From Bacteroidales bacterium (GTDB lineage Bacteria > Bacteroidota > Bacteroidia > Bacteroidales > P3), in contig JAGCVD010000003.1 in NCBI GenBank assembly GCA_017962545.1, forward strand, positions 1 through 56,463: a stretch of DNA of 56,463 nucleotides. Direction: 5' to 3'. Below, piece by piece: positions 1,274 through 56,280 of the stretch. Positions within the stretch are counted from its first letter, which is position 1; every line of letters starts with the position of its first letter. Both the position numbers and the translations under genes were made by a program. Under the pieces are notes generated by a model that saw only the letters and a program-made list of their open reading frames with translations, was not told the DNA's origin and made no database searches.

Positions 1274-1315
1274 CCCTGAAACTTGAACCCTGAAACTTTA
1301 AACTTAAAACCTTGA
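1274..1315 (+). repeat. 7-bp degenerate tandem repeat spacer
   Basis: Six 7-bp units, for example ccctgaa and acttgaa, begin at the base after the phosphatase stop codon and run through the TTG start codon of the transporter gene. The repeat therefore makes up the whole intergenic spacer. It is the reverse-complement type of the tract at 3751-3806 (consensus tttcagg). Confidence 0.85.
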
Positions 1316-2661
1316 TCAAGTTCTGTGTCCGATTGGTGCAGCGTTGGCTGCCCGAGCCTTTCATCTTCGCCATACTGCTCACTTTTGTGGCGGCGCTGAC
1401 GGCCATGCCTGTGTGTCACCAAACGCCCGTCGAGGTGGTGGAACACTGGGGCGGTGGCGTATGGAACCTGCTGGCTTTCGCCATGCAGATGTCGTTGGTG
1501 CTGGTGTGCGGCTCGGCGCTGGCGGCGGCACCTGTGGTGAAGAAGGCCATCACAGCCTTGGCGCGGCTGCCCAAGAGCGCTGCCGGCGCTATAGCGCTTG
1601 TCACCGTGGTGTCGGCGCTGGCTTGCTGGCTTAACTGGGGCTTCGGTCTCATCGTGGGTGTCATCTTCGCCAAGGAGATAGCGCGTCAGCTACAGGGCGT
1701 CGACTACCGATTGCTCATCGCTTCGGCTTACAGTGGCTTCGTGGTGTGGCATGCGGGTCTGTCGGGTTCCATACCGCTAACTATGGCCACGCCGGGCGAG
1801 GCCCTCGCCGTGGCTACCAACGGTGCCCTCACGGCTCCGGTGTCTGTCGGACAGACCATCCTCGACCCGCACAACCTCGTTATGGTACTGTTGGTCATCG
1901 CGGGTATCACGGTGGCCAACACACTGATGCACCCCAGACAGGGCGCTGTGACGGTGGATCCCAGCCTCCTCGAAGAAGACCCTAAAGACCTTAAGGACCT
2001 TAAAGTCCTTAAAGACCTTACCCCTGCCCAACGCATGGAGCAGAGCCCCGCGCTTTCGTGGCTCATCGGAGGACTGCTGCTGGCTTATCTGGTATTGCGG
2101 CTGGGCTTCCGTGGTGGCAATCTCGACCTGGGCGCCGTCATTATGCTTTTCCTCTCGCTGGGCCTGCTGTTGCATGGCACACCGGTAGCCTATGTGCGTG
2201 CCTTTGGGAAGGCCGCCACAGGGGCTGCGGGCATCATACTGCAGTTTCCGTTCTATGCCGGTATCATGGGTATCATTACCGGCATAGGCGCCAGCGGTAT
2301 CAGTCTGGGCAATGTGCTGGCTGACGCCTGTATCAGGGTGTCGGGGCCTGTCACCTATCCGTTGCTGACCTTCCTCTGTGCCGCTGTGCTCAACCTCTTT
2401 GTGCCGAGTGGCGGCGGCCACTGGGCCATCCAGGCACCCATCATGTTCACCGCTGGCGCCGACCTGGGTGTCGACCCCGGTCTCACCGGCATTGCCATCG
2501 CTTGGGGTGACGCGTGGACTAACCTTATACAGCCCTTCTGGGCCTTGCCGGCGCTGGCCATAGCACGTCTCAGCGCCAAGGACATCATGGGCTTCTGCTT
2601 GATAGACCTGCTTGTCACCGGTGTTATCATCGGCGGTGGGCTGCTGCTATGGGCAATGTGA
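1312..2661 (+). CDS. atoE: Short-chain fatty acid transporter, AtoE family
   Basis: 449 residues of a polytopic inner-membrane protein of the SCFA_trans family, which moves short-chain fatty acids such as acetoacetate or butyrate. The N-terminus (RWLPEPFIFAILLT), the GFGLIVG segment, and the C-terminal motif VPSGGGHWAIQAP are typical. The start is TTG; no nearby ATG gives the conserved N-terminus. A hydrophilic loop (about residues 222-238) carries a 9-bp repeat encoding PKD-LKD-LKV-LKD, absent from the usual family sequence. The gene lies far from the kamDE/CoA-transferase operon in this window, so a link to fermentation is only suggestive. Confidence 0.9.
   Translation: MIKFCVRLVQRWLPEPFIFAILLTFVAALTAMPVCHQTPVEVVEHWGGGVWNLLAFAMQMSLVLVCGSALAAAPVVKKAITALARLPKSAAGAIALVTVVSALACWLNWGFGLIVGVIFAKEIARQLQGVDYRLLIASAYSGFVVWHAGLSGSIPLTMATPGEALAVATNGALTAPVSVGQTILDPHNLVMVLLVIAGITVANTLMHPRQGAVTVDPSLLEEDPKDLKDLKVLKDLTPAQRMEQSPALSWLIGGLLLAYLVLRLGFRGGNLDLGAVIMLFLSLGLLLHGTPVAYVRAFGKAATGAAGIILQFPFYAGIMGIITGIGASGISLGNVLADACIRVSGPVTYPLLTFLCAAVLNLFVPSGGGHWAIQAPIMFTAGADLGVDPGLTGIAIAWGDAWTNLIQPFWALPALAIARLSAKDIMGFCLIDLLVTGVIIGGGLLLWAM
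1981..2016 (+). repeat. 9-bp tandem repeat inside atoE
   Basis: Four 9-bp units (cctaaagac, cttaaggac and variants) lie in frame and encode a charged tripeptide repeat of the LKD type in a loop between predicted membrane segments. Because the unit is three codons, a change in copy number would not shift the frame. Confidence 0.85.
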
Positions 2662-2680
2662 AAAATGAAAAGCAAAAGAT

Positions 2681-3244
2681 ATGTTCGAAGACGTCATTAA
2701 ACACTATCCTGATTTCCCCAAAGCGGGTATTGATTTCATCGATGTGTTGCCTTTCTTGCAAAACAAGGAGGCCTTCAAGGAGGCTATCGCCGAAATTGAC
2801 CGCCGTTGCACGGCGCCCAACATCGCCACCGTCGAGGCGCGGGGTTTCCTCTTCACGGCACCCTTGCTGACAGACTCCAACCGTGTGCAGACCATTGTGC
2901 CCATTCGTAAGAAAGGCAAGCTGCCCCATGCCGAGGGCGACTTGGTGCGGGTGGAGATAGAGAAGGAGTATGGCAGCGATGAGGTGTTCTACCGTCGCAG
3001 CGACCTGGCGGCCTGCGTGGCAGAGGGGGAGTTCATAGAGCTTACCTTGTTGGACGACCTACTGGCTACCGGCGGCACAGCCCAGGGAATAGCACAGGCG
3101 TTGAACAACGAGGTAATCAATGGCCGCCGTGTGCGCGTCAAGGAATTTGTTTTTCTGGTTGAGTTGCCGGCCCTCAAAGGTCGTGAGGTGCTGGAGAGCA
3201 TAGCCCCGGTGCACTCGCTGATGAGTCTGGCGGGAGTGGAGTAG
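2681..3244 (+). CDS. apt: Adenine phosphoribosyltransferase
   Basis: 187 residues. Converts adenine and PRPP to AMP in purine salvage, in the cytosol. The N-terminal VIKHYPDFPKAGIDFIDVLPFL, read as two short blocks (HYPDFPKAGI, DFIDVLPF), the ARGFLF motif, the RKKGKLPH loop and the PRPP-binding loop LLDDLLATGGTA near residue 130 are all in place. The length matches the family. The start lies 19 bases after the transporter stop, so the two are probably co-transcribed. The 3' end meets the convergent DUF456 gene after one base. Confidence 0.93.
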   Translation: MFEDVIKHYPDFPKAGIDFIDVLPFLQNKEAFKEAIAEIDRRCTAPNIATVEARGFLFTAPLLTDSNRVQTIVPIRKKGKLPHAEGDLVRVEIEKEYGSDEVFYRRSDLAACVAEGEFIELTLLDDLLATGGTAQGIAQALNNEVINGRRVRVKEFVFLVELPALKGREVLESIAPVHSLMSLAGVE

Positions 3245-3245
3245 G

Positions 3246-3737
3246 CTAGAAGAGCCCCACGATAACCAATATCAGCAACACCAAGCAGTAGATGACTTTG
3301 GCGACGATGCCGGCCATCATGCCCAGGAAGGATCCCACGGCGGCCCGCAGGGCTGTCGTGGGATCTTTCTGTTTGAGAAATTCGCCTACGAAGGCTCCCA
3401 CGAAAGGCCAGAAGAAGACGCCTACAAGGCCCGCAGGTCCGAAGGGCAGCCCTATGAGCGACAGCAGCAAGCCTATGGTACAGCCCCAGACACCCCATTT
3501 GGTGCCTCCGAAATGCCGTGTCGTCAGCAGAGGGAAGATGTAGTCGAACACCATCAGCACCACACCGATGACGGCACTCCACAGCAGCAGGCTGTTGCTC
3601 ACGGCGACATAGCCGCTCAGGCGCGCCAGCAGCAGGCCGCCCCAGGCTACAGGCACCGCCGGCGGCACGGGAGTGAAGACGGCCACGATGGCTACCAGCA
3701 GGCAGACAAAAGCCAGGATAATCAAGACGGTATTCAT
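3246..3737 (-). CDS. DUF456 family membrane protein
   Basis: 163 residues, almost entirely hydrophobic, with about four predicted membrane segments. The glycine- and proline-rich start after the first helix (TPVPPAVPVAWGGLLLA) and the later GPFGPAG-type and FVGEFLKQKD segments fit DUF456, a family of unknown function found in many bacteria. It is the downstream neighbour of the GNAT-HD gene on the same strand and is separated from it by a 7-bp repeat tract. No biochemical role can be assigned. Confidence 0.75.
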   Translation of the reverse strand: MNTVLIILAFVCLLVAIVAVFTPVPPAVPVAWGGLLLARLSGYVAVSNSLLLWSAVIGVVLMVFDYIFPLLTTRHFGGTKWGVWGCTIGLLLSLIGLPFGPAGLVGVFFWPFVGAFVGEFLKQKDPTTALRAAVGSFLGMMAGIVAKVIYCLVLLILVIVGLF

Positions 3738-3750
3738 GGGGTGGGGGGAG

Positions 3751-3806
3751 TTTCAGGTTTTAGGTTTCAAGTTTTAGGTTTCAGGTTTCAAGTTTCAGGT
3801 TTAAAG
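3751..3806 (-). repeat. 7-bp degenerate tandem repeat, eight units
   Basis: Eight consecutive 7-bp units alternate among tttcagg, ttttagg and tttcaag. They fill most of the gap upstream of the DUF456 gene and run into the last six codons of the GNAT-HD gene, whose C-terminal KPET and stop codon are made of repeat sequence. Confidence 0.9.
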
Positions 3807-8201: not shown

Positions 8202-9062
8202 ATGAGACAACTGAAGATTACCCATTCCATTACCAACCGCGATATCAAGTCGTTGGATAAATACCTGCAAGATATCTGCAGCGAGGAGTTGCTCACTCCA
8301 GAACAGGAGGTGCAGCTGGCGCAGCGTATCAAGCAGGGTGACCAGGCGGCGTTGGAGCGTCTCACGAAGGCTAATTTGAGATTTGTTGTGTCTGTGGCCA
8401 AGCAGTACCAGAATCAAGGTCTCAGTCTGCCTGACCTCATCAATGAGGGCAATGTGGGTCTTATCAAGGCAGCCAAACGTTTTGACGAGACTCGCGGTTT
8501 TAAGTTTATCAGTTATGCGGTGTGGTGGATACGTCAGAGCATACTGCAGGCTATAGCCGAGAATTCTCGCATCGTGCGCCTGCCTTCCAACCAGCTTGGT
8601 GCCCTCAATAAACTGAAAAAGGAAATCAGCAAACTGGAGCAGCAGTTGGAGCGTCCGCCATCAGAGGAGGAGCTGGCTGACATGCTCGATATTCCGGAAG
8701 ACAAGATCAAGGCTATTATGGGTATCAGCGGCCGTCATGTGAGTATCGACGCCCCGTTGGCCAGCGATGAGGACGTGAACTTTGTTGACGTGCTTCCCAA
8801 TGAAGACACCCCGCCGACCGACGACAAGTTGATGCAGGAGAGCCTCTCGCAAGAGATTGAGCGTTGCCTGTCGACGTTGACGGAATATGAGCGCGAGGTC
8901 ATCAAGATGTATTTCGGCATCGGCCTGCCTCACCCGTTGAGTCTGGATGAGATTGCCATGAAGTTCAACCTCACTCGTGAGCGAGTGCGCCAGATTAAAG
9001 AGAAAGGTATCAAACGCCTCAAGACCAGCAGCAAGAGCAAGCACTTGAAAGCGTATCTTTAG
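8202..9062 (+). CDS. rpoD: Housekeeping RNA polymerase sigma factor RpoD
   Basis: 286 residues, the compact form normal for Bacteroidota, in place of the 600-residue proteobacterial sigma-70. Region 1.2/2 begins at [26 protein letters not shown] and [14 protein letters not shown] mark region 2.1-2.2; [15 protein letters not shown] is region 2.3-2.4 (promoter melting); the C-terminus has [28 protein letters not shown], the region 4.2 helix-turn-helix. I chose the ATG that gives [14 protein letters not shown]; an in-frame codon 45 bases upstream would add residues not found in relatives. The stop codon is the first part of an 8-bp repeat spacer leading into rsmG. Confidence 0.95.
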
Positions 9063-9103
9063 TAGTTAAGTAGATAGGAAGTTAAGTAGTTAAGACAATA
9101 GAA
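9061..9103 (+). repeat. 8-bp degenerate tandem repeat spacer
   Basis: Units such as agtagtta and agtagata repeat five times from the rpoD stop codon to the TTG start of rsmG and make up the entire spacer. The tract ends in ttaagacaatag, nearly the same ending as the tracts at 19112 and 24983. Confidence 0.85.
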
Positions 9104-9724: not shown

Positions 9725-10664
<940 letters not shown>

Positions 10665-12873: not shown

Positions 12874-14944
12874 CGCGGTGGATTTTCACATTGTATTTCT
12901 TCCACAAATCTTCATTCAACTGCTGCTCCACCTCGTTCTGCCATGCGTTGAGGTAGTATCCGCGGGCCTCGCGGATGCCTTTGAGGCTGCGGGGCAGCAC
13001 TTCTTCCACTACGAGCAGACGGTAGCCATTGTCCTTAGCCACGGTGTAGACGCCGGGCTGCCATTGGTCATCGGCCAGCAGGCGCTGGCGAGTCTGTTCC
13101 ACCTGCTCTACACCAATAGTGACAAGGTTCTCGGCAGCATACTTTTTCTGGTCGACTTTCTTCAGCAGTTGCGCTTTCATCTCGTTGCTGCCCAGGCTCT
13201 TCTTACGGGCTTTCTCGATAATCTTCTGTGCCTTGGTGGCTTCCAGCGCCTCGGCGTCAGCCACATCGATGACGGTGACACGGGCACGAGGATGGAAGAA
13301 ATAGATAGAGTCGTCGGGGTTGTCGAGGCGTTTGGTGCGGCTCTCACGAGCGTAGAAATCGGCGAAGCCGATAGTGTCGTTGATGGCTTTGTGCCATATC
13401 ATGGCGTCGTTGTAGTTGAATATCATCAGACCACGACGGTATTCATCCACAATCTGAGCAAAATCGGGATATTCCTTCTCCAGCTGGCTGTCGGCATAGT
13501 CTATGCTGACACTGTCGAGGAAGTTCTCGTAGCGGTGGCGCAGGTAGACCTGCATGTCCTCGCGCTGGCCACGTTTCTGCTGACGGTAGATATAACGGCC
13601 CACATCGAGAGAGGTGTATCTCTTGGAGGGGGTGACTATCAGCGCTGTGGTGTCGGTGAAGAGACTCTCGTTGATACGCCAGCGGGCTTGGCGCACAGAG
13701 TCGGGCACTACACGACTCAGTTCGTCGAGAGAAGCCATCATCTTCACGGGAGCGTTCTTCTTCTTGCGGCCTTTCTCTATGATGGGTGTCGTGGTGCAGT
13801 CAACGATGCCGTATTTCTTGCGGCTGTTGGCGGCGAAGGTCTTGCGCGACTCTTCGCCACGCAGGTCGCGAGCCATACGTTGTTTGTAGAAGCCTTCCAG
13901 GTCTTCCGGCTGTGGCAGTGTGTCGCGTTTGATGAGTTTGATGATGTGCCATCCGTACTGAGTGAAGAATGGTTTGCTGAACTCACCATTCTTCATGTCG
14001 ACCAGTTTATGGACATATTCGGCTGGCAGTTGCGACAGGCTGACATCCCCCAACATACCGCCGTTTCTCGACGTGGTGCGGTCGTCGCTTTGGCGTGCCA
14101 AAGAAGCGAATTCAAGGCCCTGCGACAGCTCATTGTAGATGTTGTATATGTCGTTGCGACGAGTGCTCGAGTCGGTGCTGTGCAGCCAGATGTGGGCTAG
14201 GGTGACGCGGCCGTAAAGGCCTTCCACACGGTCGAGCAGTTTGATGATATGGAATCCGTAGCGTGTGCGTACGGGCTTGCTGACTTCGCCAACCTGAAGG
14301 GCGTAGGCAGCGTTCTCAAAGGGATATACCATATCGAATACCGAGAAGAATCCGAGGTCGCCCTCGTTGGGACGAGGAGTCACCTCGGGTTTGGTCTTGC
14401 GGAGATATTCGACGGCGACCTCGAAGAAATCCTCACCACCGTTGACGATGCGGTTATATAATCCCATGGCGGTGTTGTAGGCGTTCAGCGAGTCTTCCGG
14501 TGTGGCGTAGAGGGGTGTCGATACCAGAATGTGTGCGGCATGCAACGAATAGTGGTTGCGCTCGTAAGCTTCGGCCAACAGCTGTTGCAGTACGGTTGAG
14601 TCGATGAGGTAGGGTGCCGCCAGCTCTTTGCGGTAGCGCATCAACTCGTCCTGCAGGGCGGCGGCAGTGTCGAAGCCGCGAACATGGGCGTCGAGCAGTT
14701 TGGCGCGGAAAGTGGCGTAGAGGTCGACATACTCTTCCAGCGCGGCGCGTTTCTCGGCCGTGGTGACGTCACCCTTCCGGTTCAATTGCTGGCCTACATT
14801 GGCGTTGAATTCTTTAAGGAATTCTGACTGGCGTATCTGTTGGTCGCCGACCTCAATGACGATGGGGTCGGTCTGTGCTTGTAAAGTTGAAAATTGAAAA
14901 TTGAAAATTGAAATGATGGCAGCTGCCAGCAAAATCTTCTTCAT
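12848..14944 (-). CDS. Large PpiC-type periplasmic foldase
   Basis: 698 residues. Two PpiC modules sit at about residues 125-225 (SLHAAHILVS, GDLGFFSVFDMVYPFE, TRYGFHIIKLLDR) and 240-345 (TLAHIWLHS, MLGDVSLSQLPAEY, TQYGWHIIKLI); the remaining C-terminal half is a long helical region. The signal peptide core, IFNFQFSTL, is written by a 7-bp repeat (see 14883). The gene is the first of three foldase genes, 41 bases after guaB, with the gap filled by repeats. PpiC proteins isomerise Xaa-Pro bonds and chaperone outer-membrane proteins. Confidence 0.85.
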   Translation of the reverse strand: MKKILLAAAIISIFNFQFSTLQAQTDPIVIEVGDQQIRQSEFLKEFNANVGQQLNRKGDVTTAEKRAALEEYVDLYATFRAKLLDAHVRGFDTAAALQDELMRYRKELAAPYLIDSTVLQQLLAEAYERNHYSLHAAHILVSTPLYATPEDSLNAYNTAMGLYNRIVNGGEDFFEVAVEYLRKTKPEVTPRPNEGDLGFFSVFDMVYPFENAAYALQVGEVSKPVRTRYGFHIIKLLDRVEGLYGRVTLAHIWLHSTDSSTRRNDIYNIYNELSQGLEFASLARQSDDRTTSRNGGMLGDVSLSQLPAEYVHKLVDMKNGEFSKPFFTQYGWHIIKLIKRDTLPQPEDLEGFYKQRMARDLRGEESRKTFAANSRKKYGIVDCTTTPIIEKGRKKKNAPVKMMASLDELSRVVPDSVRQARWRINESLFTDTTALIVTPSKRYTSLDVGRYIYRQQKRGQREDMQVYLRHRYENFLDSVSIDYADSQLEKEYPDFAQIVDEYRRGLMIFNYNDAMIWHKAINDTIGFADFYARESRTKRLDNPDDSIYFFHPRARVTVIDVADAEALEATKAQKIIEKARKKSLGSNEMKAQLLKKVDQKKYAAENLVTIGVEQVEQTRQRLLADDQWQPGVYTVAKDNGYRLLVVEEVLPRSLKGIREARGYYLNAWQNEVEQQLNEDLWKKYNVKIHRDVVRKITF
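14883..14914 (-). repeat. 7-bp tandem repeat in a signal peptide
   Basis: Units aaaattg repeat four times (first one aaagttg). Read on the minus strand they encode the hydrophobic centre of the PpiC protein signal peptide. Confidence 0.9.
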
Positions 14945-14947: not shown

Positions 14948-14988
14948 TCTACTACTTATCTACTTAACTATAGTCTACTAAACTACTA
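14948..14988 (-). repeat. 8-bp degenerate tandem repeat spacer
   Basis: Units related to ttaactac fill the gap between guaB and the large PpiC gene and run into the guaB stop codon. It is the reverse-complement type of the tract after rpoD. Confidence 0.85.
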
Positions 14989-16458
14989 ACGCGAATAGTT
15001 CGGAGCTTCGCGGGTGATGGCGATGTCGTGCGGATGACTCTCGGTGCGGCCGGCAGCAGTGATGCGTATGAACTTGGCCTGCTGCAGGTCTTCGATGGTG
15101 CGGCTGCCAGTGTAGCCCATGCCGGCCTTCAGGCCACCCACCATCTGGTAGAGTACCTCGCTGAGGGTGCCTTTGTAAGGCACGCGGCCTACGACACCTT
15201 CGGGGACGAGCTTCTTGGCGTCGGTCTCCTTGTCTTGGAAGTAGCGGTCCTTCGAGCCGCTCTGCATGGCCTCGAGCGAGCCCATGCCACGGTAGGACTT
15301 GAACTTACGGCCTTCGAAGATGATGGTCTCGCCTGGAGCCTCGTCCACGCCAGCTACCAGGCTGCCCACCATGATGCTGCTGGCACCTGCGGCGATGGCC
15401 TTCACGATGTCGCCGCTGTAGCGGATGCCGCCGTCGGCGATGACGGGCACATCGTAGCCCTTCTGCTTGAGGGCACCGCAGACCTCGCAGACGGCGGTGA
15501 GCTGCGGCACACCGATGCCGGCAACGATACGTGTTGAGCAGATGCTTCCGGGTCCTATGCCCACTTTGATGGCGTCGGCGCCGGCCTCGGCCAGCATGAT
15601 GGCTGCCTCGCCGGTGGCGATGTTGCCCACCACGACGTCAATCTCCGAATAGGCGTCTTTCACTTTCTTCAGCGCCTCGACTACACGGATGCTGTGGCCG
15701 TGGGCGGTGTCGATGACGATGGCGTCAGCACCGGCTTTCACCAGCGCGTCGACACGGTCCATCATGTCGGGCGTGATGCCTACGCCGGCGGCTACGCGCA
15801 GACGTCCGTTGCTGTCCTTGCAAGCGTTGGGGCGCTCCTTGGTCTTCATGATGTCGCGGTAGGTGATGAGACCCATGAACTGTCCTTTTTCGTTGACCAC
15901 AGGCAGCTTCTCAATCTTGTGCTGTTGCAGTATATCGGTGGCCTCGGCGAAGGTGGTGCCCACATGTGTGGTGATGAGCTTGGTAATCATAATCTCGCTC
16001 AGCGGACGCTCCATGTCGCGCTCGAAGCGCAGGTCACGATTCGTCACCATGCCGATGAGCATGCGGTTTTCGTCGACGATGGGAATGCCGCCGATGCCGT
16101 ACTCGGCCATCAGACGCAGGGCATCCTTTACCTTGGCGTCCTTGTCGAGGGTCACGGGGTCGATAATCATGCCGTTCTCGGCACGTTTCACCTTGCGCAC
16201 CTCGTTGGCCTGACGCTCGATGCTCATATTCTTGTGCAGCACGCCGATGCCGCCCTCCTGGGCCATGCCGATGGCCATAGCGGCCTCTGTCACGGTGTCC
16301 ATGGCTGCCGACACGAGCGGCGTGTTGAGCATGATACGCTTCGAGAAGCGCGACGCTACCGAGACTTCGCGGGGCAGCACTTCAGAATAGGCGGGGACGA
16401 GCAGCACGTCGTCGTAAGTAAGGCCTTCGCCGATCAATTTAGTGGTGTCTGTATACAT
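14986..16458 (-). CDS. guaB: IMP dehydrogenase
   Basis: 490 residues. Oxidises IMP to XMP with NAD+, the committed step of GMP synthesis. The barrel is split by two CBS domains (about residues 95-210). The catalytic loop [11 protein letters not shown] holds the nucleophilic Cys; [27 protein letters not shown] and the flap region GVEGRVPYKG-like VVGRVPYKG are present. It has its own promoter and heads a minus-strand run that continues through three foldases and moxR, though the repeat-filled gap leaves open whether transcription continues. Confidence 0.95.
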
Positions 16459-16570: not shown

Positions 16571-18727
16571 TTATGCGCCATGCATTACCTCGTTGAGGGT
16601 CTTGACGGTGATTTTTGCATGCGACACGTCGGCTTTGGGGTCGGTGGGGATAAAGGTGGTGGTGACGCTTTCGCCAGCCGTGAGGTCGAAAATGTTACGC
16701 GTGAAGTGGCCGTTGATGTGTGGGTCGGTGTCGAGGTATACATCGTAAAGGTCGCTTTGTGCGGTGATGGTCACCTGTAGTGATGAGTGATGGGTAATGA
16801 GTGATGAGTTGACAGTGTAGCGGGGTTCTGGATAGGTGCGGTCTTTGGGATAGACGCTGTAGTATTGTTCCCATTTCGACAGGTCCACGTCGTCGGCGTA
16901 AAGCGCCTGTACACGGTAGTGCAAGGCCTTCCAGTTGCCGTAGTAGTCGATAGAGCTCCACGAGGCTACGGGCCAGCAGTCGTTGAGTTGCCAATAGAGG
17001 GTGCCCATGCAGTGGGGTTGCTGCTTGATGTGCTGGAGGATGCCGTAGCCGACGCCCCAGGCTTGCAACAGTTGACTGACGTAGCAGTAGTCCTCCAATG
17101 AGAGGCTCTTGCTGTCGAAGCCGTAGTACTGTCGCATGGCTTTGTCGATGATTTCACGGCCGCGGCCATGTTTCTGGTGGCTTCTTAATGTGGGTGAGTC
17201 GATGCTGAGCTGCTCCTCAGGGCAGAACTGGCGGATGGTGCTCATCATGGGGTAGCTCTGGAAGCCGTACTCGCTCATGAAGCGACCGGTCTTTTCGGCA
17301 TATTTCTCGAAGGGTTCTTCGCCCCACCAGACACCCCAGTAGTGGCTGTCGCCGTGGGTGACGCATTCGGGGTGCCCCCAGCCGTAGAGCGGCGAGGTGG
17401 TGATGTAGGGGCGCTGCAGCGGGTCGCAGTCTTTCACCGCTTTTGCCAGAATACTAGATGTGCTAGAATTACTAGATGTGCTAGGATATCCGAAGATGGT
17501 GTCCATGGCTTTCTCCAGGCGGGCGCGCTGCTCGGGCGTCCAGTTGAATTGTCCCTGCCAGCCCCAGTCTTCCCAGCCGTTCTTCACCTCGTTGTTGCCG
17601 CACCAAAGGACGACGCAGGGGTGCTTTGCAATGCGGCTTACCTGTTGGCGCACCTCGTGGTAGATGTTATTCAGCATCTCCGCGTTGTCGGGATAAGGCG
17701 AGCCGGCGAAGATGAAGTCCTGCCACACCATTATGCCCAGCGAGTCGCAGAGGTCGTAGAAGTAGTCGTGCTCGTAGATGCCGCCGCCCCAGACGCGCAG
17801 CATGTTGAAGCCCGCCTCCTTGGCGGAGGTGAGTAGCAGTCGGTAGCGGTAGCGGTTGGCTTTGTCGTCCACGGGGAAGCTGTGGACAGGAATCCAGTTG
17901 GCCCCCTTGATGAATAGCCTCACCCCCTTACCCCTCTCCTCGGAGGAGAGGGGTGTGGATACTCCCGTGTCGGCAATGAAATAGAAGGACTGCCCTATGC
18001 TGTCGGGCTCCTGTATTAGCCTGACGTTGCGGTAAGGGAAGCTAAAGGCTCTCCTTACCTCGGAGGAGAGGGGTTGGGGGTGAGGCTTATTTGTGATATA
18101 TACCGACTTCCAGATGCCGCAGGTGGGCAGCTTGGGGCCCCAGTCCCATCCCGGCTGATAGGGCGCCATACGTGTGAAGGCGCGCCGGTCGGGAAGGGTG
18201 ATGCCATATTCGGCCTCGCGGACAGAGTCGTTCAAAGGCTCGAACATAATCATAATGGGTATCGAATCCTTGAAGACATACTGCTTCATCATCTGTTTTA
18301 CACCGGGCAAAGGAATCTCGTAACGACAGAACATATTATCCATTGACCAAATATGTTGTGGCACTATGATTACGCCGTTTATGGTGTCTTCTGGGTAGGG
18401 GTTCCCGATCCAAAGGCTTGCGTTGCCGGCCAGCCCTTCGAACACCAGCCAGAGGGTGTCGCCGTCAGGCAGTTTGTCATAATGAAGATAGGTACGGTAT
18501 ATCCATAAGCTGTCACTTACCCAACGCACAGAGTCCTCGTTGGTGCAGTAATACGGGTCGGGGATAATGCCGTTGGCCATCAGGTCGGTGTGGATGAATC
18601 CCGGCACCGTCGCCGGATACCACTTGCCGTTGTATTCAAACTGCCAGTCGGTCAGCTCTATCGTGTTGGGCTTTGTCGCGCATGCCGCCAGCAGCAACGG
18701 CAACAACAATAAGGGTAAATGTTTCAT
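16571..18727 (-). CDS. GH2 beta-mannosidase, domain replaced by repeats
   Basis: 718 residues with a lipoprotein signal (LLAAC). The N-terminal sugar-binding domain (residues 20-210) and the TIM barrel (from about 270) match GH2 beta-mannosidases: QPGWDWGPKL, FIKGANWIP, MLRVWGGGIYEHDYF, the acid/base Glu380 in GNNE, and the nucleophile Glu486 in SEYGFQ. Relatives run to about 850 residues. The beta-sandwich domain expected between GIWKSVYI (206) and the barrel is nearly gone; in its place are two copies of a palindromic repeat at residues 213-226 and 252-268. Two more repeats lie at residues 415-426 and 640-650. The frame is open throughout, but activity is doubtful. It may be a decaying gene. 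Confidence 0.8.
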   Translation of the reverse strand: MKHLPLLLLPLLLAACATKPNTIELTDWQFEYNGKWYPATVPGFIHTDLMANGIIPDPYYCTNEDSVRWVSDSLWIYRTYLHYDKLPDGDTLWLVFEGLAGNASLWIGNPYPEDTINGVIIVPQHIWSMDNMFCRYEIPLPGVKQMMKQYVFKDSIPIMIMFEPLNDSVREAEYGITLPDRRAFTRMAPYQPGWDWGPKLPTCGIWKSVYITNKPHPQPLSSEVRRAFSFPYRNVRLIQEPDSIGQSFYFIADTGVSTPLSSEERGKGVRLFIKGANWIPVHSFPVDDKANRYRYRLLLTSAKEAGFNMLRVWGGGIYEHDYFYDLCDSLGIMVWQDFIFAGSPYPDNAEMLNNIYHEVRQQVSRIAKHPCVVLWCGNNEVKNGWEDWGWQGQFNWTPEQRARLEKAMDTIFGYPSTSSNSSTSSILAKAVKDCDPLQRPYITTSPLYGWGHPECVTHGDSHYWGVWWGEEPFEKYAEKTGRFMSEYGFQSYPMMSTIRQFCPEEQLSIDSPTLRSHQKHGRGREIIDKAMRQYYGFDSKSLSLEDYCYVSQLLQAWGVGYGILQHIKQQPHCMGTLYWQLNDCWPVASWSSIDYYGNWKALHYRVQALYADDVDLSKWEQYYSVYPKDRTYPEPRYTVNSSLITHHSSLQVTITAQSDLYDVYLDTDPHINGHFTRNIFDLTAGESVTTTFIPTDPKADVSHAKITVKTLNEVMHGA
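16779..16813 (-). repeat. 7-bp tandem repeat inside the mannosidase
   Basis: Five units (agtgatg and variants ggtaatg, agttgac). On the minus strand they encode SSLITHHSSL-type residues near the C-terminal domain of the GH2 protein. Confidence 0.88.
17453..17485 (-). repeat. 9-bp tandem repeat inside the mannosidase
   Basis: Alternating units actagatgt and gctagaatt, about four copies, encode a Ser/Thr-rich insert (STSSNSSTSS) in a barrel loop after the acid/base Glu. The unit keeps the reading frame. Confidence 0.85.
17916..18087 (-). repeat. Two copies of a palindromic element in an ORF
   Basis: Both copies contain ctcggaggagagggg. The left copy holds a perfect palindrome cccctctcctc-g-gaggagagggg (17931-17953). 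The outer 12 bases, agcctcaccccc at 17916 and its exact complement ending at 18087, form a terminal inverted repeat around 172 bp. The left copy has lost its right arm and the right copy its left arm, as if one 50-bp palindrome had been split or two copies recombined. Both are translated in frame as PLSSE-containing peptides. Confidence 0.75.
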
Positions 18728-19111: not shown

Positions 19112-19154
19112 TTAAGGAGTTAAGGAGACAGGAGATAAGGAGTTAAGGCAATAG
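19112..19154 (-). repeat. 8-bp degenerate tandem repeat spacer
   Basis: Units ttaaggag, ataaggag and variants fill the gap between cinA and the DUF486 gene. The tract ends in ttaaggcaatag and covers the cinA stop codon and last three codons. Confidence 0.85.
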
Positions 19155-24982: not shown

Positions 24983-25021
24983 GAGGTAAGGAGATAAGGA
25001 GGTAAAGAGATAAGACGATAG
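24983..25021 (-). repeat. 8-bp degenerate tandem repeat spacer
   Basis: Units gagataag and gaggtaag repeat between the mutS2 start and the nitrilase stop. The tract ends in ataagacgatag. Confidence 0.88.
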
Positions 25022-25044: not shown

Positions 25045-25839
25045 TTAGTCGAAGTCGAGGTAGAAGGGCCAGTGTTGGCGGAAGGTGTTGAGCCTTTCTT
25101 TGTCGAGGGTGGCAGTGACGGTCTGGTTGGCGCCGTGTTCCGCTTCAGCGACGGAGAACCCTTTGTAGTCGACGAGGGCACTGTTGCCTGTGTATTTACC
25201 TCCTACACCATCTATGCCGCTGCGGTTGCAGCCCAGCACATAGCACAGGTTCTCTATAGCACGGGCTTTGAGGAGCGTGGTCCAAGCCTCGTGACGGCTT
25301 CCCGGCCAATTGGCGCAGATGAGCAGCAGGTCATAGTCTAGTTCGGAATTCGGAGAGCGGAGTTCGGAGTTGCGCAGCCATTTCGGGAAGCGGAGGTCGT
25401 AGCAGACGGCGGGCTTGATGCGCCAGCCTTTGTATTCGAACACAGCCTTTTCGGTGCCACGGGTTATCACGTCGGCCTCGCCGCTGACGCGGAAGGTGTG
25501 GCCTTTGTCGTAGGTGCCGAAAGTGCCGTCGGGGTAAACCCAGTGCAGACGATTGTAGACCTTGCCATCTTCTTTCACAATCCAGGTGCCGACGAAAAGC
25601 ATGTCATACTGTGCAGCCATGCGGCGTGCCCACTGCAGCGTGGGGCCTTCTTGCTCCTCGGCCAATGCAGCCATGTGGTCGCCAAAACCAGTGGTAAAAG
25701 TTTCGGGGACGACGAAGATGTCAGCGCCCGAAGCGCTGACCACAGTGTTGGCCAGCATTTTTTTCACCTTCTGACGGTTGGCTTCGGCATCGCCCCAGAT
25801 GATATCCTGTTGGTAAAAGGTTATGTGCAACTCGTTCAT
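25045..25839 (-). CDS. Nitrilase-family amidohydrolase
   Basis: 264 residues of the carbon-nitrogen hydrolase fold, closest in style to omega-amidase/YafV proteins that remove toxic alpha-ketoglutaramate-like products. The catalytic triad is visible: Glu46 in VPETF, Lys112 in YDKGH and Cys146 in VCYDLRFP. Residues 157-167, NSELRSPNSEL, right after the catalytic strand, are a 7-bp repeat insert; relatives pass directly from RFP-W-RN to YDLL. The start overlaps the ribF stop by four bases, so the two are translationally coupled. Whether the loop insert harms the active site is unknown. Confidence 0.85.
   Translation of the reverse strand: MNELHITFYQQDIIWGDAEANRQKVKKMLANTVVSASGADIFVVPETFTTGFGDHMAALAEEQEGPTLQWARRMAAQYDMLFVGTWIVKEDGKVYNRLHWVYPDGTFGTYDKGHTFRVSGEADVITRGTEKAVFEYKGWRIKPAVCYDLRFPKWLRNSELRSPNSELDYDLLLICANWPGSRHEAWTTLLKARAIENLCYVLGCNRSGIDGVGGKYTGNSALVDYKGFSVAEAEHGANQTVTATLDKERLNTFRQHWPFYLDFD
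25340..25374 (-). repeat. 7-bp tandem repeat inside the nitrilase gene
   Basis: Five units (agttcgg, aattcgg, agagcgg and variants) encode the NSELRSPNSEL insert. Confidence 0.9.
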
Positions 25840-29048: not shown

Positions 29049-29127
29049 CAAATTATTTTATAATGATAACAACTCTTTTTCATATCTTTTTTACAGCCGT
29101 TTTTTAGCTATTTCTTTGGATAAAAGC

Positions 29128-42410: not shown

Positions 42411-43199
42411 ATGAGCGAAGGATTGTATTCGATGGAGGCTAAGGATTACGACAAAACCTTAGACCTTACCAAGATAAAGCCATACGGCGACACAATGAAC
42501 GACGGCAAGGTTCAGCTGAGTTTCACCCTGCCGGTGCCTGCGGGAGCTGAGGCCGAAGAGGCCGCCAAACAGTTGCTCAAGAAGATGGGCTTCGAGAATC
42601 CTCTGGTGGTGTATCAGAAAGAGCTGACCGAAGGCTTCTGCTTCATGAACTGCTACGGTTCGCTGACCCATACGGTGGATTACACCAGCATCCATGTGCC
42701 CAAGGTGGAGAGCACCACGATGGACATGCACGAGTGCGATGAGTATATCCGTGAGCACATCGGCCGCAAGATAGTCATCGTGGGTGCCTCGACGGGTACC
42801 GACGCCCACACTGTGGGTATCGACGCCATCATGAACATGAAGGGCTATGCCGGCCACTACGGCTTGGAGCGCTACGACATGATTGATGCCTACAACCTCG
42901 GCAGCCAGGTGCCCAACGAGGAGTTCATCGCCAAAGGTATTGAGCTGCATGCCGACGCCCTCATCGTCAGCCAGACGGTGACGCAGAAGGATGTGCATAT
43001 CAAGAACCTCACCGAACTCGTAGAGATGCTCGAGGCTGAGGGCCTTCGCGACAAAGTCATCCTTATCTGCGGCGGTCCCCGTATCAGTCACGAACTGGCC
43101 AAGGAACTTGGTTATGATGCCGGCTTCGGTCCCAACACCTACGCTGACGACGAAGCCTCATACATCGCCCAGGAGATGGTGGCCCGCGGATGGAAATGA
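42411..43199 (+). CDS. kamE: Lysine 5,6-aminomutase beta subunit
   Basis: 262 residues. The beta subunit holds both cofactors. The base-off cobalamin motif is DAHTVG with His133 as cobalt ligand, and Lys144 in MNMKG is at the position of the PLP-binding Lys144 of the Clostridium sticklandii enzyme. A Rossmann domain follows, ending in GGPRISHELAKELGYDAGFG. The N-terminal dimerisation arm is complete. The gene starts one base after kamD and stops at the repeat that leads to the CoA-transferase. Confidence 0.95.
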   Translation: MSEGLYSMEAKDYDKTLDLTKIKPYGDTMNDGKVQLSFTLPVPAGAEAEEAAKQLLKKMGFENPLVVYQKELTEGFCFMNCYGSLTHTVDYTSIHVPKVESTTMDMHECDEYIREHIGRKIVIVGASTGTDAHTVGIDAIMNMKGYAGHYGLERYDMIDAYNLGSQVPNEEFIAKGIELHADALIVSQTVTQKDVHIKNLTELVEMLEAEGLRDKVILICGGPRISHELAKELGYDAGFGPNTYADDEASYIAQEMVARGWK

Positions 43200-43226
43200 A
43201 AATTAAAAATTAAAAATCAAAAATAA
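43199..43226 (+). repeat. 7-bp tandem repeat spacer
   Basis: Four units (aaaatta twice, aaaatca, aaaataa) fill the gap between the kamE stop and the CoA-transferase ATG; the last base is the A of the start codon. Confidence 0.85.
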
Positions 43227-44519: not shown

Positions 44520-47500
44520 ATGTTGTTCAACGGTCATCGTTTGCCATCTGTCGCCATACTTGTCTGCGTTGGCCTGCTACTTCATTCTTCATTCTTTACC
44601 CGTAATACTCTCAGTGCTCAGTCAATGCCGGCACGCTCTAACGTGACGCCATACTATGATGAGAATGGTGTGGCGAAGGAGGCCTATCGTGAATCGCCGT
44701 ACTATATGGAATTCACGGGCAGTTGGCAGCAGCGTCAGACCGATAGTTCGGTTTGCTATATACGGCAAGTGGACGCCGAAAAGAGCTGGAAGGACTATTT
44801 GGTGTATCTGAATGTCCGAGCCGGCCGTGCGGTACGTGTGTCGGTAAATGGCAAGGAGGTGGGTTACGCCGACGATTCACGCCAGTGGAATGAGTTTCTG
44901 CTGACGCCCAGTCTCAGGTATGACAGAGCAAACACGCTCGTTGTCGAGACCTTGCATCAGGGACAGGGAGCGTTGCTGGAAGATGCAACATTGTCCGTAG
45001 GTCTCAACGGTGAGCCTTACCTTATCTTCAAGAATGACCCCAATGTGGCCGATTTCACGATGACGGCCGACTACGATGCTGCCAGCACCACAGGTATATT
45101 GTCTGTGAGCGCCAATGTCTTCTGCGGCAAACGTAAAGGGAAATACTACCTGGAGGTCGAGATATGGGATCCTCGGGGTCGCAATTTCGACCGTATGGGT
45201 CGTTGGGTGGTGTTCAACGGCAGGAGTGAAGAGACGGTCGACGTCAGTCGCTCATGGGCCGGTGTCTCACCGTGGAACGCGGAAGAGCCCAACCTCTACA
45301 CTGCGGTGATACGTCTGCGCAACGACAAGATGGAAGAGGAGGAGGTTGTCGGAGGCCGTTTTGGTTTCCGACGTGTGGAGGTGAAAGACGGAGTGCTGCA
45401 ACTCAATGGCAAAGCCATCACCCTTAAGGGGGTCACCTATGGGGTGGAGCATACCGAAGGTTGTGCTTCTCGCCAGCAGATGCAACATGATGTGGAGACC
45501 ATGAAGCGTAACAACATCAATGCTGTGCGAACAGCACGCTATTCGCCGATGGATTCTTGGTTCTACGAACTATGCGACCGTTATGGACTGTATGTTGTAT
45601 GCGATGCTAATCTGTTGCCCCTTTCGGAACAGCGACAGGCCGTGGCGACGAATTCAGACTTTATGCCGCTGTTCGAGCACCGTGTGGAGAATCTGTATGG
45701 AAAATACAAGAACCATACCAGTATCATCGCCTGGTCGTTGGGCAACACGCGCGACAATGCCGTCTGTATGACGGCGGCTTACAAACGCCTGAAGGCCAAG
45801 GATAAGACGCGCCCTGTGATTTTTTCTGGCGCTGACCATGGCGATGCCACCGACGTGATAGCGCCACAGCAGCCTGAATTGATGGCGTTGCGCCAAAGCT
45901 TGAAGAAGCAAGGCGAAAGGCCATATCTCCTCCTGACCAGTGTTGACAGAGTCCATTTTGCTGACCTCGAGGCATTGTGGCAACTCGTTGTTGACAACAG
46001 GCAGCTGCAGGGTGGCTTTGTTGACGCGTGGCCTCTCGGTAGCGTGATGCTTTCCGAGTTGAAGTACCTTTACCAGCCTTTCGATGTCAGACTCGATAAG
46101 ATGACGCCCGACGACGGCGAGTTTGTGGTCTATAACCGTAACGACTTTACTCCTTTCGGACGTTATTCGCTGGATTATAGCATCTTCACTAACTTGAGGC
46201 CCTCCATCACTGGTGGTGAGTTGCCAGCGGTGCCTCCCTGTGGTGGCAGCGACAAGGTGAGCATGCGCATCCCGCATGTCGACCTGCAGGCAGGCGAGGA
46301 AATGTTCATACGTTTCAACCTAAGGGTGAGTGGACAAAGCGCCTCGGCTACCCAAGGCACCATAGTGTTTCCTCTGGAGCCCCCAAAGCGCACCAAGCCG
46401 ATGTTCGAGAATGGTGGCGAGATAATGGGTACTCCCGACTTGATACTGACGGATTTGGGTTTTGTCAATCACTCCGATTGGCATAAGGAGATTGTCGACA
46501 GACGTGAACGTCGGACGGATACCAAAACATTTTGCATCGATGTAATGGAACGTTATCTAGAGCCGGAGAGCGGTGCGACAATGTGCGACGTCCGTTCCAC
46601 TTACACCTATTTCAGTAGTGGTGACGTGGTGCTGGATTATACGGTGTTTCCTTCTGACTTGTTGCGGGGAACTACGACGCGGACTTTCGTCAAGGTCTTT
46701 TATGAAAGCGATAGTGTGACATGGTTCGGTAACAACCGTGAGGTCTACTTTCGTGAGGGTAAATCTGCCGATGTCGGCGTGTATAGCCATAACTCCAACG
46801 GAGTTGTCCGTCAACAGGTACGCTGGTGTGCCACACACAAGGGTGGGGAAGGAGTGTTTATGGAAGTGCTCGACGAGAAGTGCGGCATGGAAGTCTGCAA
46901 GGAATCAGTGATGCTGCTTCCAGAAAGCCAGCAAAGTTTCCGTCTGCATCTTCGTCCATATTCAGGTGTTGATCCCGCGGAGTTCTATGGGAAAGCCTAC
47001 CCTCGCATGCAGGCGGGAGTGCTTGAAATGCCCGTTATCACGGCCTCCGACACTCGTTTCTCAGCTCCTTTAATAGTGTCCATTACAAGCAGTCAATCAG
47101 ACAATCAGGCAATCATAAGATATACTCTCGACGGCTCCGACCCAACGATGGAGTCGCCGCTTTACATCGCACCTTTCGAGATTACCTCCACCACGACGGT
47201 CAAGGCGCGGGCCTTTGCAAAGGATATGCCGCCGTCGTTCACCGCCACACGCAAGTTCAACTACGACCACATCGTGAAGACCACCTTCTCGCGCAAAGCC
47301 AATACACCCTATAATGTCGGTGCCGACACAATCCTTTTCGATGGCGTCAAAGGTACTATAGAAGACCTCTCGCAGGGATGGCTTGGGTTCTCTGGCGAGC
47401 CTGTCGTCACCACCGTGCAGCTTGCCAAGCTTATCAATGTGGAACATATCACGCTGCGTTATGCCCATACCCCTGGCACATGGGCTTTCGCCCCTCGTCA

Positions 47501-54583: not shown

Positions 54584-54589
54584 GGTCGT

Positions 54590-54621
54590 AAAAGTCGAAG
54601 AGTCAAAAAGTCTAAAAGTGG
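54590..54621 (-). repeat. 8-bp tandem repeat between genes
   Basis: Four units (aaaagtcg, aagagtca, aaaagtct, aaaagtgg) lie between the GNAT gene end and the deaminase start and include the GNAT stop codon. Confidence 0.8.
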
Positions 54622-55163: not shown

Positions 55164-55173
55164 GGTGTCTAAA

Positions 55174-55201
55174 AAAGCCGAGATAGCAAGACCTCGGCTT
55201 T
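55174..55201. terminator. Hairpin terminator after etfA
   Basis: Stem aaagccgag / ctcggcttt with a 10-base loop; A run on the left gives a T tract for the minus strand, so it ends the etf transcript, 23 bases beyond the etfA stop. Confidence 0.8.
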
Positions 55202-55223
55202 CGTTTGTTGATGCAGGATGTTG

Positions 55224-56234
55224 TTATTTCTGCATGGTCTTCAATCTCTCTGTGAGCATCGGGACGATCTTGTGGAGGTCGCCGACGATGCCGAGGTCAG
55301 CCACTTGGAAGATAGGGGCGAACTTGTCTTTGTTGATGGCGATGATGAGCTCGCTCTCCTCCATACCGGCAAGGTGTTGGATGGCACCGCTAATGCCGCA
55401 AGCCATGTAGAGGGCGGGACGGACGGTCTTACCCGTCTGACCGACCTGACGGCTGGCATCCATGACGCCGGCGTCGACCATGGCACGGCTGCTGGAGACT
55501 TCGCCGCCGAGTTCGTTGGCCAGTGCCTCGAGCTTGCTGAATCCGTCCTTGGTACCTACACCGCGGCCACCGCTGACGAGCACCTTGGCCTGGCTGATGT
55601 CGGTGATGGTCTTCTCTTCCTTGACGGTCTTGACCAGCTTGACGCGGGCAATCTTCTTCTCGTCGAAGGTGACCTTGTAGTCAACGACCTCGCCTTTGCG
55701 GCTCTTGTCGGCGGCCATCTTCTGCATGACGCCGGGGCGGACGGTGGACATCTGCGGGCGGTTGTTCTTGCAGAGGATGGTGGCCATGAGGTTGCCGCCG
55801 AAGGCGGGACGGGTCATGCGGAACTCGTGGGCCTCGTCGTCGCTGATCTCCAGCTTGGTGGCGTCGGCGGTGAGGCCGGTGCGGTTGCGGGCGGAGACGC
55901 GGGGGCCGAGGTCGCGGCCGATAGTGGTGGCGCCGATGAGCATGATGCTGGGCTTCTGCTCGGTGATGATTTGGGTGATGGCCTCGGTGTAGGGCTCGGT
56001 GAGGTAGTCCTTCAGCAGGTCGTGGTCGACGACGAGGACCTTGTCGGCACCGTGCTCGATGAGGGTGTTGGCGAGGGGCTTGATGTCCTTGCCAAGGAGC
56101 ATGGCAACGACCTTCTCCTGGTTGGCGTCGGCGAGCTCGCGAGCCTTACCCAACAGCTCAAGAGCCACATTCTGCAGTTTGCCGTCGCGCTGCTCGGCAA
56201 ACACGTAAACGTCTTTATATTCTGATAAATCCAT
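55224..56234 (-). CDS. etfA: Electron transfer flavoprotein alpha subunit
   Basis: 336 residues. EtfA holds the FAD and passes electrons to or from acyl-CoA dehydrogenases; in fermenters it may take part in electron bifurcation with butyryl-CoA dehydrogenase. The FAD site is seen as [35 protein letters not shown] and [20 protein letters not shown]. Full length. It follows etfB on the same strand with a 42-bp spacer of 9-bp repeats, and a hairpin terminator ends the unit. Confidence 0.94.
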
Positions 56235-56280
56235 AGTCTTAATGGGTTTAATGGGTCTAATAGGTCTAATGGTCTATTAG
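56235..56280 (-). repeat. 9-bp tandem repeat spacer
   Basis: About five units (cttaatggg, tctaatagg and variants) fill the entire space between the etfB stop and the etfA start and include the etfB stop codon. The same unit type appears in the signal peptide at 27845-27904. Confidence 0.88.

What the first reader, a model, noticed from the sequence alone, without database searches (positions are those of the whole stretch)
1274..56280. A scattered set of period-7/8/9 tandem repeats in spacers and genes
About 18 loci show degenerate tandem repeats with unit lengths of exactly 7 (1274, 3751, 14883, 16779, 23951, 25340, 43199, 44581), 8 (9061, 14948, 19112, 24983, 54590) or 9 bp (1981, 17453, 27845, 56235), plus one of 11 (29128). 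The unit sequences differ widely, yet length classes recur, and complementary unit types occur (ccctgaa/acttgaa against tttcagg/tttcaag; agtagtta against ttaactac). Six of them form nearly the whole spacer between co-directional genes and run into stop or start codons. Different sequences sharing a period suggests they are made by one process, such as a template-free or slippage-type synthesis, rather than copied from each other. I know of no accepted name or mechanism for this set.
Basis: seen in the sequence. Interest (0 to 1): 0.85.

Follow-up and report, generated by a model that had tools for sequence, protein, structure and literature searches.

The report
Seven-letter repeats overwriting dispensable DNA
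In a group of uncultured gut bacteria, short tandem repeats, most often with a seven-letter unit, fill gaps between genes and even encode what look like signal peptides and protein loops; the same spot can carry a different repeat in each species, which points to a fast repeat-making process whose mechanism is not yet known.

Summary
Of 18 listed sites, 16 exceed chance; 44581 and 27845 are weak. In 396 kb of this genome, 196 spacers hold 9 arrays of period 7, 8 of period 8 and 9 of period 11 (none in 20 shuffles); genes hold 16 of period 7 (none in 5 codon shuffles). In 80 related loci (1.51 Mb), period 7 has 110 arrays, 11 has 68, 8 has 18, 9 has 15; 5, 10 and 13 have 0, 3 and 1. Heptamer load marks some species near Ca. 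Colimorpha and was almost absent from samples of a deeper same-genus genome and four other families.

"One process, not copied" is only partly right. The classes differ: heptamers mostly lack G on one strand and share a pattern, 9-mer units are palindromic, many 11-mers form hairpins. Related species carry different units at one site, and units do not resemble the site's array-free allele (28 events). Genome-specific units are strong for 11-mers, weak for 7-mers, mixed for 8-mers. I slightly favour non-local copying plus purging selection over polymerase slippage. New variant of known bacterial heptamer repeats.

The parts
1272..1310 (.). 7/14-bp array (AACCCTGAAACTTG; TRF calls 1272-1298, the rest degenerate) filling the spacer between an alkaline-phosphatase-family gene (203-1273 +) and a short-chain fatty acid transporter (1312-2661 +)
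   Evidence: TRF score 54; spacer read; flanking genes by Pfam
3749..3806 (.). 7-bp array (GTTTCAG/GTTTCAA/GTTTTAG) between genes 3246-3737 - (DUF456) and 3788-4945 -, running over the end of the latter; inverted relative of the 1272 array (88% over 42 nt)
   Evidence: TRF score 94; inverted repeat I1
9061..9094 (.). 8-bp array (AGTTAAGT) between a sigma-70 factor gene (8202-9062 +) and a gidB-like gene (start 9104 or 9134)
   Evidence: TRF score 47; genes by Pfam; L029, L031 and L039 show no such array there, L032 has a longer stretch with other repeat-like sequence
14883..14913 (-). 7-bp array (TTTTCAA on the coding strand) encoding the hydrophobic core of the predicted leader MKKILLAAAI-ISIFNFQFSTL-QAQ of a PPIC-type peptidyl-prolyl isomerase (12848-14944 -)
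   Evidence: several relatives carry other or similar 7-mers at these codons; signal peptide judged by eye
14951..14989 (.). 8-bp array (ACTACTAA) filling the spacer between IMP dehydrogenase (14986-16458 -) and the isomerase gene, reaching the IMPDH stop codon
   Evidence: IMPDH by Pfam; the same spacer holds 7-, 8- or 9-mers in some relatives
16779..16809 (-). 7-bp array (AGTGATG) inside a glycoside hydrolase family 2-like gene (16571-18727 -), about codons 640-650, encoding NSSLITHHSSL
   Evidence: a similar array in L029; L031 and L039 lack it, L032 has a different degenerate stretch
17444..17488 (-). 9/18-bp array with palindromic CTAG units in the same gene, encoding YPSTSSNSSTSSI
   Evidence: TRF score 67; palindromic 9-mer class
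19112..19148 (.). 8-bp array (AAGGAGTT) filling the spacer between cinA-like (19143-20375 -) and DUF486 (18729-19106 -) genes
   Evidence: genes by Pfam; L029 and L050 have only a few bases there, L031 a short 7-mer stretch
23951..23983 (-). 7-bp array (GTTGGCA) in mutS2 (22546-24975 -), in the variable stretch just before the Walker A motif (encodes LQLSTANCQLPT)
   Evidence: short or with other 7- or 9-mers in relatives
24983..25014 (.). 8/16-bp array (GAGATAAG) between mutS2 and the carbon-nitrogen hydrolase gene
   Evidence: TRF score 57; an 8-mer in L045 and a degenerate one in L054; in L029, L028, L030, L031, L040, L046 and L050 my extraction returned only a few bases, so absence there is not certain
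25340..25371 (-). 7-bp array (AGTTCGG) in place of a short variable stretch after LRFPKWLRN in a carbon-nitrogen hydrolase (25045-25839 -), 21 nt longer than in L029
   Evidence: different 7-mers in L047 and L048 at the same codons
27845..27900 (-). degenerate 9-bp repeat encoding GVIGLMGLIGLIPV in the N-terminal stretch of gene 26759-27916 -; weak
   Evidence: TRF score 31, 1.6 expected by chance
43199..43224 (.). 7-bp array (AAAATTA) forming the spacer between a B12-binding aminomutase subunit (42411-43199 +) and a CoA transferase gene (43226-43885 +)
44580..44596 (+). short 7-bp repeat (CTTCATT, 2.4 copies) near the N-terminus of a glycoside hydrolase family 2 gene; weak
   Evidence: TRF score 34, 0.6 expected by chance
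54590..54619 (-). 8-bp repeat (AAAAGTCA) near the N-terminus of a cytidine deaminase-like gene (54116-54667 -)
   Evidence: TRF score 39
1976..2020 (+). 9-bp array (AAGACCTTA) encoding KDLKDLK in the fatty acid transporter
   Evidence: TRF score 69
56239..56276 (.). 9-bp array (TAATGGGTT) filling the spacer between electron transfer flavoprotein alpha (55224-56234 -) and the gene 56277 onward (-)
   Evidence: TRF score 53
29127..29161 (.). 11-bp array (CAAAGAAATAC) between divergent genes, with a partial inverted copy just upstream (TATTTCTTTGG)
   Evidence: TRF score 63; sequence; closely related 11-mers at other places of this genome (list)

Best explanation
These are long-unit microsatellite arrays produced by a lineage-specific mutational process in a group of rumen/gut Bacteroidales. 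Seen: short arrays of 7 (also 8) bp occupy DNA where sequence seems to matter little: spacers between co-directional genes, N-terminal stretches that look like signal-peptide cores (by eye), and variable stretches of proteins that alignments suggest are loops. Seen: the same site in related species can hold an array of the same period and similar length but of another unit, or no array. Seen: units are restricted (mostly no G on one strand; pattern [AC][AC]YT..) and do not resemble the allele of relatives called array-free. Inferred: new arrays are seeded, and old ones overwritten, by short-patch copying from other arrays of the genome (microhomology template switching or ectopic conversion) without flanks, and selection removes copies that harm. 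Period-9 arrays with palindromic units and period-11 hairpin arrays are separate classes; at least one 11-mer type (G012) is a dispersed palindromic element of about 110 bp.
For: Period spectrum and excess. Lineage: 27 heptamer arrays in 396 kb (own), 77 in 400 kb (G002), 23 in 200 kb (G012), 0 in 200 kb of G016, 1 in 400 kb of four other families. One site, other unit: mutS2, hydrolase with three different heptamers in window, L047 and L048, and 15 of 20 aligned proteins short, a 301-aa protein and the isomerase leader. Of 45 orthologous-site pairs with different units, 27 differ by at most one residue in length (pairs overlap, and some compare neighbouring arrays of one site). No local seed: longest exact match of array to the relative's allele 4.36 against 4.56 for permuted sites, 28 events, 1753 of 2000 permutations as high. 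Genome-specific units: 11-mers identical in 103 of 561 same-genome pairs against 1 of 960 and 0 of 500 permutations as high over the 80 loci plus own; 7-mers at 6 of 7 or better 525 of 3446 against 461 of 4471, 4 of 1000 permutations as high; 8-mers at 7 of 8 or better 20 of 193 against 0 of 171 between own and G002. Flanks unrelated in 89 of 90 same-genome pairs that share a long imperfect segment. Shared pattern.
Against: Over the 80 loci plus own, 8-mers show no same-genome excess (391 of 500 permutations as high) and the mean similarity of 7-mers does not either (89 of 500), though the fraction at 6 of 7 does (4 of 500). The 8-mer of L048, from the G002 species, matches 8 remote arrays of the window's genome and 1 of its own. 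For the window's heptamers, remote arrays of G002 match at least as often as those of the same genome. With unit and length controlled, imperfect segments are shared hardly more within genomes (54 of 268) than between them (87 of 557). Some alleles used as array-free carry 9-mers or decayed repeats, and relatives are roughly 10-20% diverged, so a lost local seed could be missed. My gene caller accepts only open frames, so arrays that break a gene would not be counted as in-gene. No birth was seen directly.
Confidence: 0.4

Rival explanations
1. Independent local births by replication slippage, with the period set by the polymerase (the explanation proposed for the heptamer excess in bacteria). 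Each array grows from a chance seed at its own site; the shared pattern reflects which heptamers slip easily.
For: Period-7 preference with many different units; pattern shared by 137 arrays of 39 genomes; after control, imperfect segments are shared about equally within and between genomes; +7 residues (21 nt) in L047 against 10 of 12 orthologues and in the window against L029; one 22-bp array differs by a unit between L089 and L090.
Against: No resemblance of array to the relative's allele; net length change against the best-scoring orthologue called array-free is 0 or 7 residues in only 4 of 31 events, and for example +5 in L039 against 7 of 8 orthologues, though the relatives' own lengths vary too; 11-mer units are shared between unlinked loci of one genome.
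Confidence: 0.36
2. The arrays are functional cis elements, such as translational or regulatory binding sites near start and stop codons.
For: Many sit directly at stop or start codons, as reported for TAACTGA repeats near start codons (PMC4679880, abstract and passages).
Against: In co-directional spacers the G-poor strand is sense 23 times and antisense 23 times, with 2 ties; units differ between species at one site; 45 of 110 period-7 arrays of the 80 loci are in genes.
Confidence: 0.06
3. A telomerase-like or other reverse transcriptase writes the repeats from an RNA template (DRT10 makes tandem-repeat cDNA, 9 nt in one system, PMC12632851).
For: Tandem repeats of short unit with variable sequence are the reported product of DRT10 (passages). 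G012, which has heptamers, has one weak match to PF00078.
Against: G002, the array-richest genome sampled (98% complete), and the window's genome (81% complete) have no PF00078 match; 9 of 25 genomes have one. No DRT-specific model was searched.
Confidence: 0.04
4. Phase-variation contingency loci: copy-number changes of 7 bp switch genes on and off.
For: 7-bp units inside genes shift the frame when one unit is gained.
Against: The window's host genes are mostly housekeeping; 8 of 22 orthologous pairs with similar units keep the exact length, 14 do not. Broken alleles would be missed by my gene caller.
Confidence: 0.04

Closest known systems
Long simple sequence repeats with 5-11 bp units, heptamers most abundant (Mrazek et al. 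2007, not seen itself; as described in passages of PMC4679880 and PMC4692102)
   Same: Unit length range, heptamer excess, phylogenetically scattered occurrence
   Different: Here arrays are short and degenerate, 45 of 110 period-7 arrays lie in genes, and one site can change unit between species
TAACTGA direct repeats of marine Beggiatoaceae, Cyanobacteria and five Bacteroidetes (PMC4679880; abstract, sections 12 and 15 and passages read)
   Same: 7-bp direct repeats, mostly in spacers near codons, some in genes near the ends of proteins; in two Bacteroidetes the spacer also holds other heptamers and close relatives lack the repeats
   Different: One fixed unit there, related heptamers rare as repeats in that genome; here dozens of units with a shared pattern
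GGGAATC repeats of Xanthomonas and GGGGA(T/C)T of Nostoc (PMC4692102; abstract text and passages read)
   Same: Heptamers between co-directional genes, length and sequence variation between relatives
   Different: G-quadruplex-forming, four-unit preference, under-represented in genes
Heptamer-derived satellites of bacteria, e.g. GATAGRA of Chloroflexus (PMC6749651; passages read)
   Same: Dispersed heptamer arrays in one species
   Different: Longer regular satellites of a single unit
Tandem repeats of archaeal Borg elements (PMC9879509; passages read)
   Same: Fast, independent formation; new protein segments; base-composition bias of units
   Different: Perfect repeats, units in genes divisible by three, different domain and replicon
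Cyanobacterial STRR heptamers (name recalled; PMC4692102 mentions three heptamers in Calothrix)
   Same: Heptamers in a bacterial genome
   Different: Not compared here
REP/MITE-like palindromic elements (recalled) for the 11-mer hairpins
   Same: Dispersed palindromic intergenic element in G012 with near-constant ends
   Different: Stem built of 11-bp tandem units; units differ between species

Membership tests
Bacterial long simple sequence repeats (5-11 bp units) | Tandem units of 5-11 bp in excess over chance | tested here: met
Bacterial long simple sequence repeats (5-11 bp units) | Heptamers the most abundant class | tested here: met
   110 of 286 arrays (periods 4-24) in 80 loci have period 7
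TAACTGA direct repeats | Unit TAACTGA | tested here: not met
   Not among the heptamers of own, G002 and G012 or the 80 loci, read by eye
Contingency loci / VNTR | Copy number varies between close strains | tested here: inconclusive
   Species-level comparison only; one 22-bp array differs by one unit between L089 and L090
Borg tandem repeats | Repeats in genes have units divisible by three | tested here: not met
   45 of 79 in-gene arrays of the 80 loci have period 7
Products of telomerase-like DRT10 | A reverse transcriptase gene in array-rich genomes | tested here: not met
   PF00078: no match in own genome (81% complete) or G002 (98%); one weak match in G012; a very divergent enzyme could be missed
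REP elements with RAYT transposase (for 11-mers; definition recalled) | Dispersed palindromic intergenic element | tested here: met
   G012 hairpin at the 7 places read
REP elements with RAYT transposase (for 11-mers; definition recalled) | Y1 transposase in the genome | tested here: inconclusive
   PF01797 in 19 of 25 genomes, 3 matches in G012, none in the window's genome; no link to the element tested

The most novel reading that the evidence does not exclude
A dedicated, sequence-specific enzymatic process in this clade writes or copies heptamer (and separately octamer) arrays of a defined pattern into many sites, each genome with its own preferred units, so that spacers, signal peptides and loops are continually rewritten.
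Probability: 0.11. Interest if true: 0.88.

Novelty: new variant of a known kind. Interest (0 to 1): 0.62.

Why it matters
A heptamer excess in bacterial genomes has been reported since 2007 (as cited in PMC4679880) with slippage only hypothesised. Here many related species carry different arrays at the same, mappable sites, which makes birth, replacement and decay of arrays countable. It also suggests that signal-peptide cores and variable loops of housekeeping proteins can be made from simple-repeat DNA, a route to rapid change of low-constraint protein segments.

Tried and rejected
Cyanobacterial origin (STRR) was the first idea; the genome lacks PF00124 and relatives are Bacteroidales MAGs. 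Transposon or segmental duplication as carrier of the heptamers: 40-80 nt away, 89 of 90 same-genome pairs are unrelated; the exception is L162/L166. Long shared imperfect segments (90 of 4803 same-genome against 10 of 5810 cross-genome pairs) were dropped as proof of copying after the control, which removed perfect arrays and orthologous cross-genome pairs and cut arrays to 36 nt. Local seeding looked significant at first (20 and 7 of 2000 permutations as high, 31 events); that came from repeats that were not new arrays. I then left out arrays with under 60% period-7 self-match (meant for the acidic repeats of L044 and L046) and L048 16910, and lowered the array-free cut-off from 9 to 7; 28 events remained (list not printed) and the effect vanished. 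Reverse transcriptase. Sense-strand function. Second array-rich clade: the TTTTCAA pattern occurs in 38 of 295 genomes of the order (its reversed control is itself a possible heptamer and rings in other genomes, so it is no clean control), but samples of four such genomes hold 7 heptamer arrays in 362 kb. In one search the IMPDH gene of L078 was mis-extracted by my script (0.316, against 91% protein identity); only that one value is void. L040 was left out of the alignment because its gene call was 410 aa. The 222 heptamers leave out L048 and L031 (same genomes as G002 and G012) but count shared ancestral arrays more than once. Papers: 7 of 10 searches listed no report of signal peptides or loops made of heptamer arrays; that covers only listings of the open library.

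Full report
Setting. The window is a contig of a 1.95-Mb, 42-contig genome (81% complete). An IMP dehydrogenase search in named genomes kept the best 80 loci of 162, titled Bacteroidales or Bacteroidetes MAGs with few exceptions, many from ruminants, two of them Candidatus Colimorpha. Gene calls are mine (a codon-usage caller); it accepts only open frames, so an array that breaks a gene would not be counted as in-gene.

Is it real? Yes. TRF has rows at the listed sites and shuffled windows do not reproduce them: at score 40 or more there are 6, 4, 4 and 3 rows of period 7, 8, 9 and 11 against means of 0, 0, 0.05 and 0.08. 44581 and 27845 do not exceed chance by score. With a separate self-match detector on the window plus 339 kb of the same genome, 196 spacers hold 9 arrays of period 7, 8 of period 8 and 9 of period 11, and genes hold 16 of period 7, all absent from shuffles (list at a slightly lower cut-off). 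In 1.51 Mb of 80 loci there are 286 arrays: period 7 has 110 (65 in spacers, 45 in genes), 11 has 68 (63 and 5), 8 has 18, 9 has 15; 5, 10, 12 and 13 have 0, 3, 4 and 1; one block-shuffle gave none. Seven is not a multiple of three, so its frequency in genes is unexpected.

Where in the tree? Heptamer arrays number 27 in 396 kb (own), 77 in 400 kb (G002), 23 in 200 kb (G012), 0 in 200 kb of G016, a deeper member of the same genus whose sample has 11- and 22-mers but no 7- or 8-mers, and 1 in 400 kb of four other families. Load is uneven even among close species: L048 has 14 period-7-type arrays in 21 kb, L054 none. One unit (TTTTCAA, three copies, up to one mismatch) occurs patchily in 38 of 295 genomes of the order, but samples of four such genomes hold only 7 heptamer arrays in 362 kb.

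Anatomy by length class. Of 222 heptamer arrays, 196 lack G on one strand; aligned, these follow [AC][AC][CT]T..., with T at one position in 99%, TCA enriched 2.7-fold and TAT nearly absent; the fit (-4.78 log units per unit) exceeds random G-free heptamers of the same composition (-5.88 to -6.02) and G-free genomic heptamers (-6.08 to -6.29). 9-mers (22 arrays) have strongly self-complementary units (4.73 against 1.86). Of 76 11-mer arrays, 31 have a long inverted partner within 120 bp against none in shuffles, both arms being counted; in G012 an 11-mer hairpin is present at the seven places read, six of them with the same left end. So the set is not one class. Why the heptamers obey this pattern is unexplained.

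Same site, other repeat. In mutS2 (47 proteins aligned), the stretch before the Walker A motif is short in some species and longer in others; at the DNA level several of the longer ones hold 7-mers or 9-mers of different units. In the carbon-nitrogen hydrolase, the stretch after LRFPKWLRN is short in 15 of 20 aligned proteins, carries a CCGAACT array in the window, AACACTT in L047 and TCATCAC in L048, and is longer without a called array in L031 and L086; the best sequence match among solved structures, 2e11, also differs there. The isomerase leader holds TTTTCAA in the window and other heptamers in some relatives. Of 67 orthologous-site pairs with arrays in both, 45 have different units, 27 of these differing by no more than one residue in length; of the 22 with similar units, 8 have equal length and 14 differ by up to 6 residues. 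The pairs overlap, and some compare neighbouring arrays of one site.

In genes. Of 75 heptamer-type arrays in genes of own, G002 and G012, 18 begin in the first 40 codons; 13 of these encode a stretch of mean hydropathy above 0.9, such as IFIFHFSFFN or ISIFNFQFSTL, often followed by AQ as in a signal peptide, and 4 are hydrophilic (judged by eye, no predictor was run). The coding strand is the G-poor one in 50, the other in 20, tied in 5; in co-directional spacers it is 23 against 23, with 2 ties. This fits removal of in-frame stops rather than a sense-strand function.

How do they arise? Slippage from a local seed predicts that the unit resembles the site. It does not in 28 events (4.36 against 4.56 for permuted sites); an earlier run that seemed to show it was driven by unsuitable events. 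Power is limited, since some alleles counted as array-free carry other or decayed repeats. Net length changes are 0 or 7 residues in 4 of 31 events; L039 shows +5 against 7 of 8 orthologues, but L047 shows exactly +7 against 10 of 12. Copying from other arrays predicts genome-specific units. That holds strongly for 11-mers; for 7-mers it is weak; for 8-mers it holds between own and G002 but not over the 80 loci. For L048 the remote arrays of its own genome match far more often (222 matches, 117 arrays) than those of own (18, 38) and G012 (11, 29), but for the window's heptamers they do not. Shared imperfect segments looked like proof but do not survive control for unit and length (54 of 268 against 87 of 557). 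Flanks are not copied. A reverse transcriptase writer is unlikely: no PF00078 match in the array-richest genome sampled. I therefore put non-local copying with purging selection first and polymerase-biased slippage a close second.

Known or new? Heptamer-rich repeats in bacteria are described, with slippage proposed for the length (PMC4679880 and PMC4692102, sections and passages read; also PMC6749651, passages). The mixture of lengths with separate patterns, the change of unit at a fixed site, and arrays as apparent signal peptides and loops were not found in the listings of seven paper searches. I file it as a new variant of a known kind.

Noticed in passing
L158 10016-10100, L159 2013-2097 and 14158-14240, L160 17245-17329, L162 629-709, L163 10004-10088, L166 9946-10030: A dispersed palindromic intergenic element, ends CCTCCGCCATTTT (left end different in L163), whose stem is three 11-bp tandem units (TTACGGTAGTA) and their inverse.
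   Followed up: partly
about 150-500 bp upstream of IMPDH in many of L027-L106 (near locus position 9500-9860): 11-bp arrays, often as long hairpins, recur at this place with different units in different species; the window itself lacks one there.
   Followed up: partly
mutS2 of L060, L080, L118, L120 (L060 DNA); window 17924-18080: In these genomes the mutS2 stretch that takes heptamers elsewhere holds another insert, and a second mutS2 site of L060 shows a CTCTCC...GGAGAGG palindrome; the window has such an inverted repeat inside its glycoside hydrolase gene.
   Followed up: no
about L162 2568-2645, L166 19898-19975, L045 8411-8533: Some heptamer arrays occur as close inverted pairs (16 of 137 arrays have a long inverted partner, none in shuffles), possibly a fold-back copying product.
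   Followed up: no
window 167, 16487, 40796, 48754: Repeated TATNTTTGCA-like stretches upstream of genes look like the Bacteroidetes promoter -7 box (recognised from recall).
   Followed up: no
L089 1073-1125 and L090 2333-2400: A 22-bp higher-order repeat differs by one unit between two closely related genomes, a sign of unit-wise length change in that class.
   Followed up: partly
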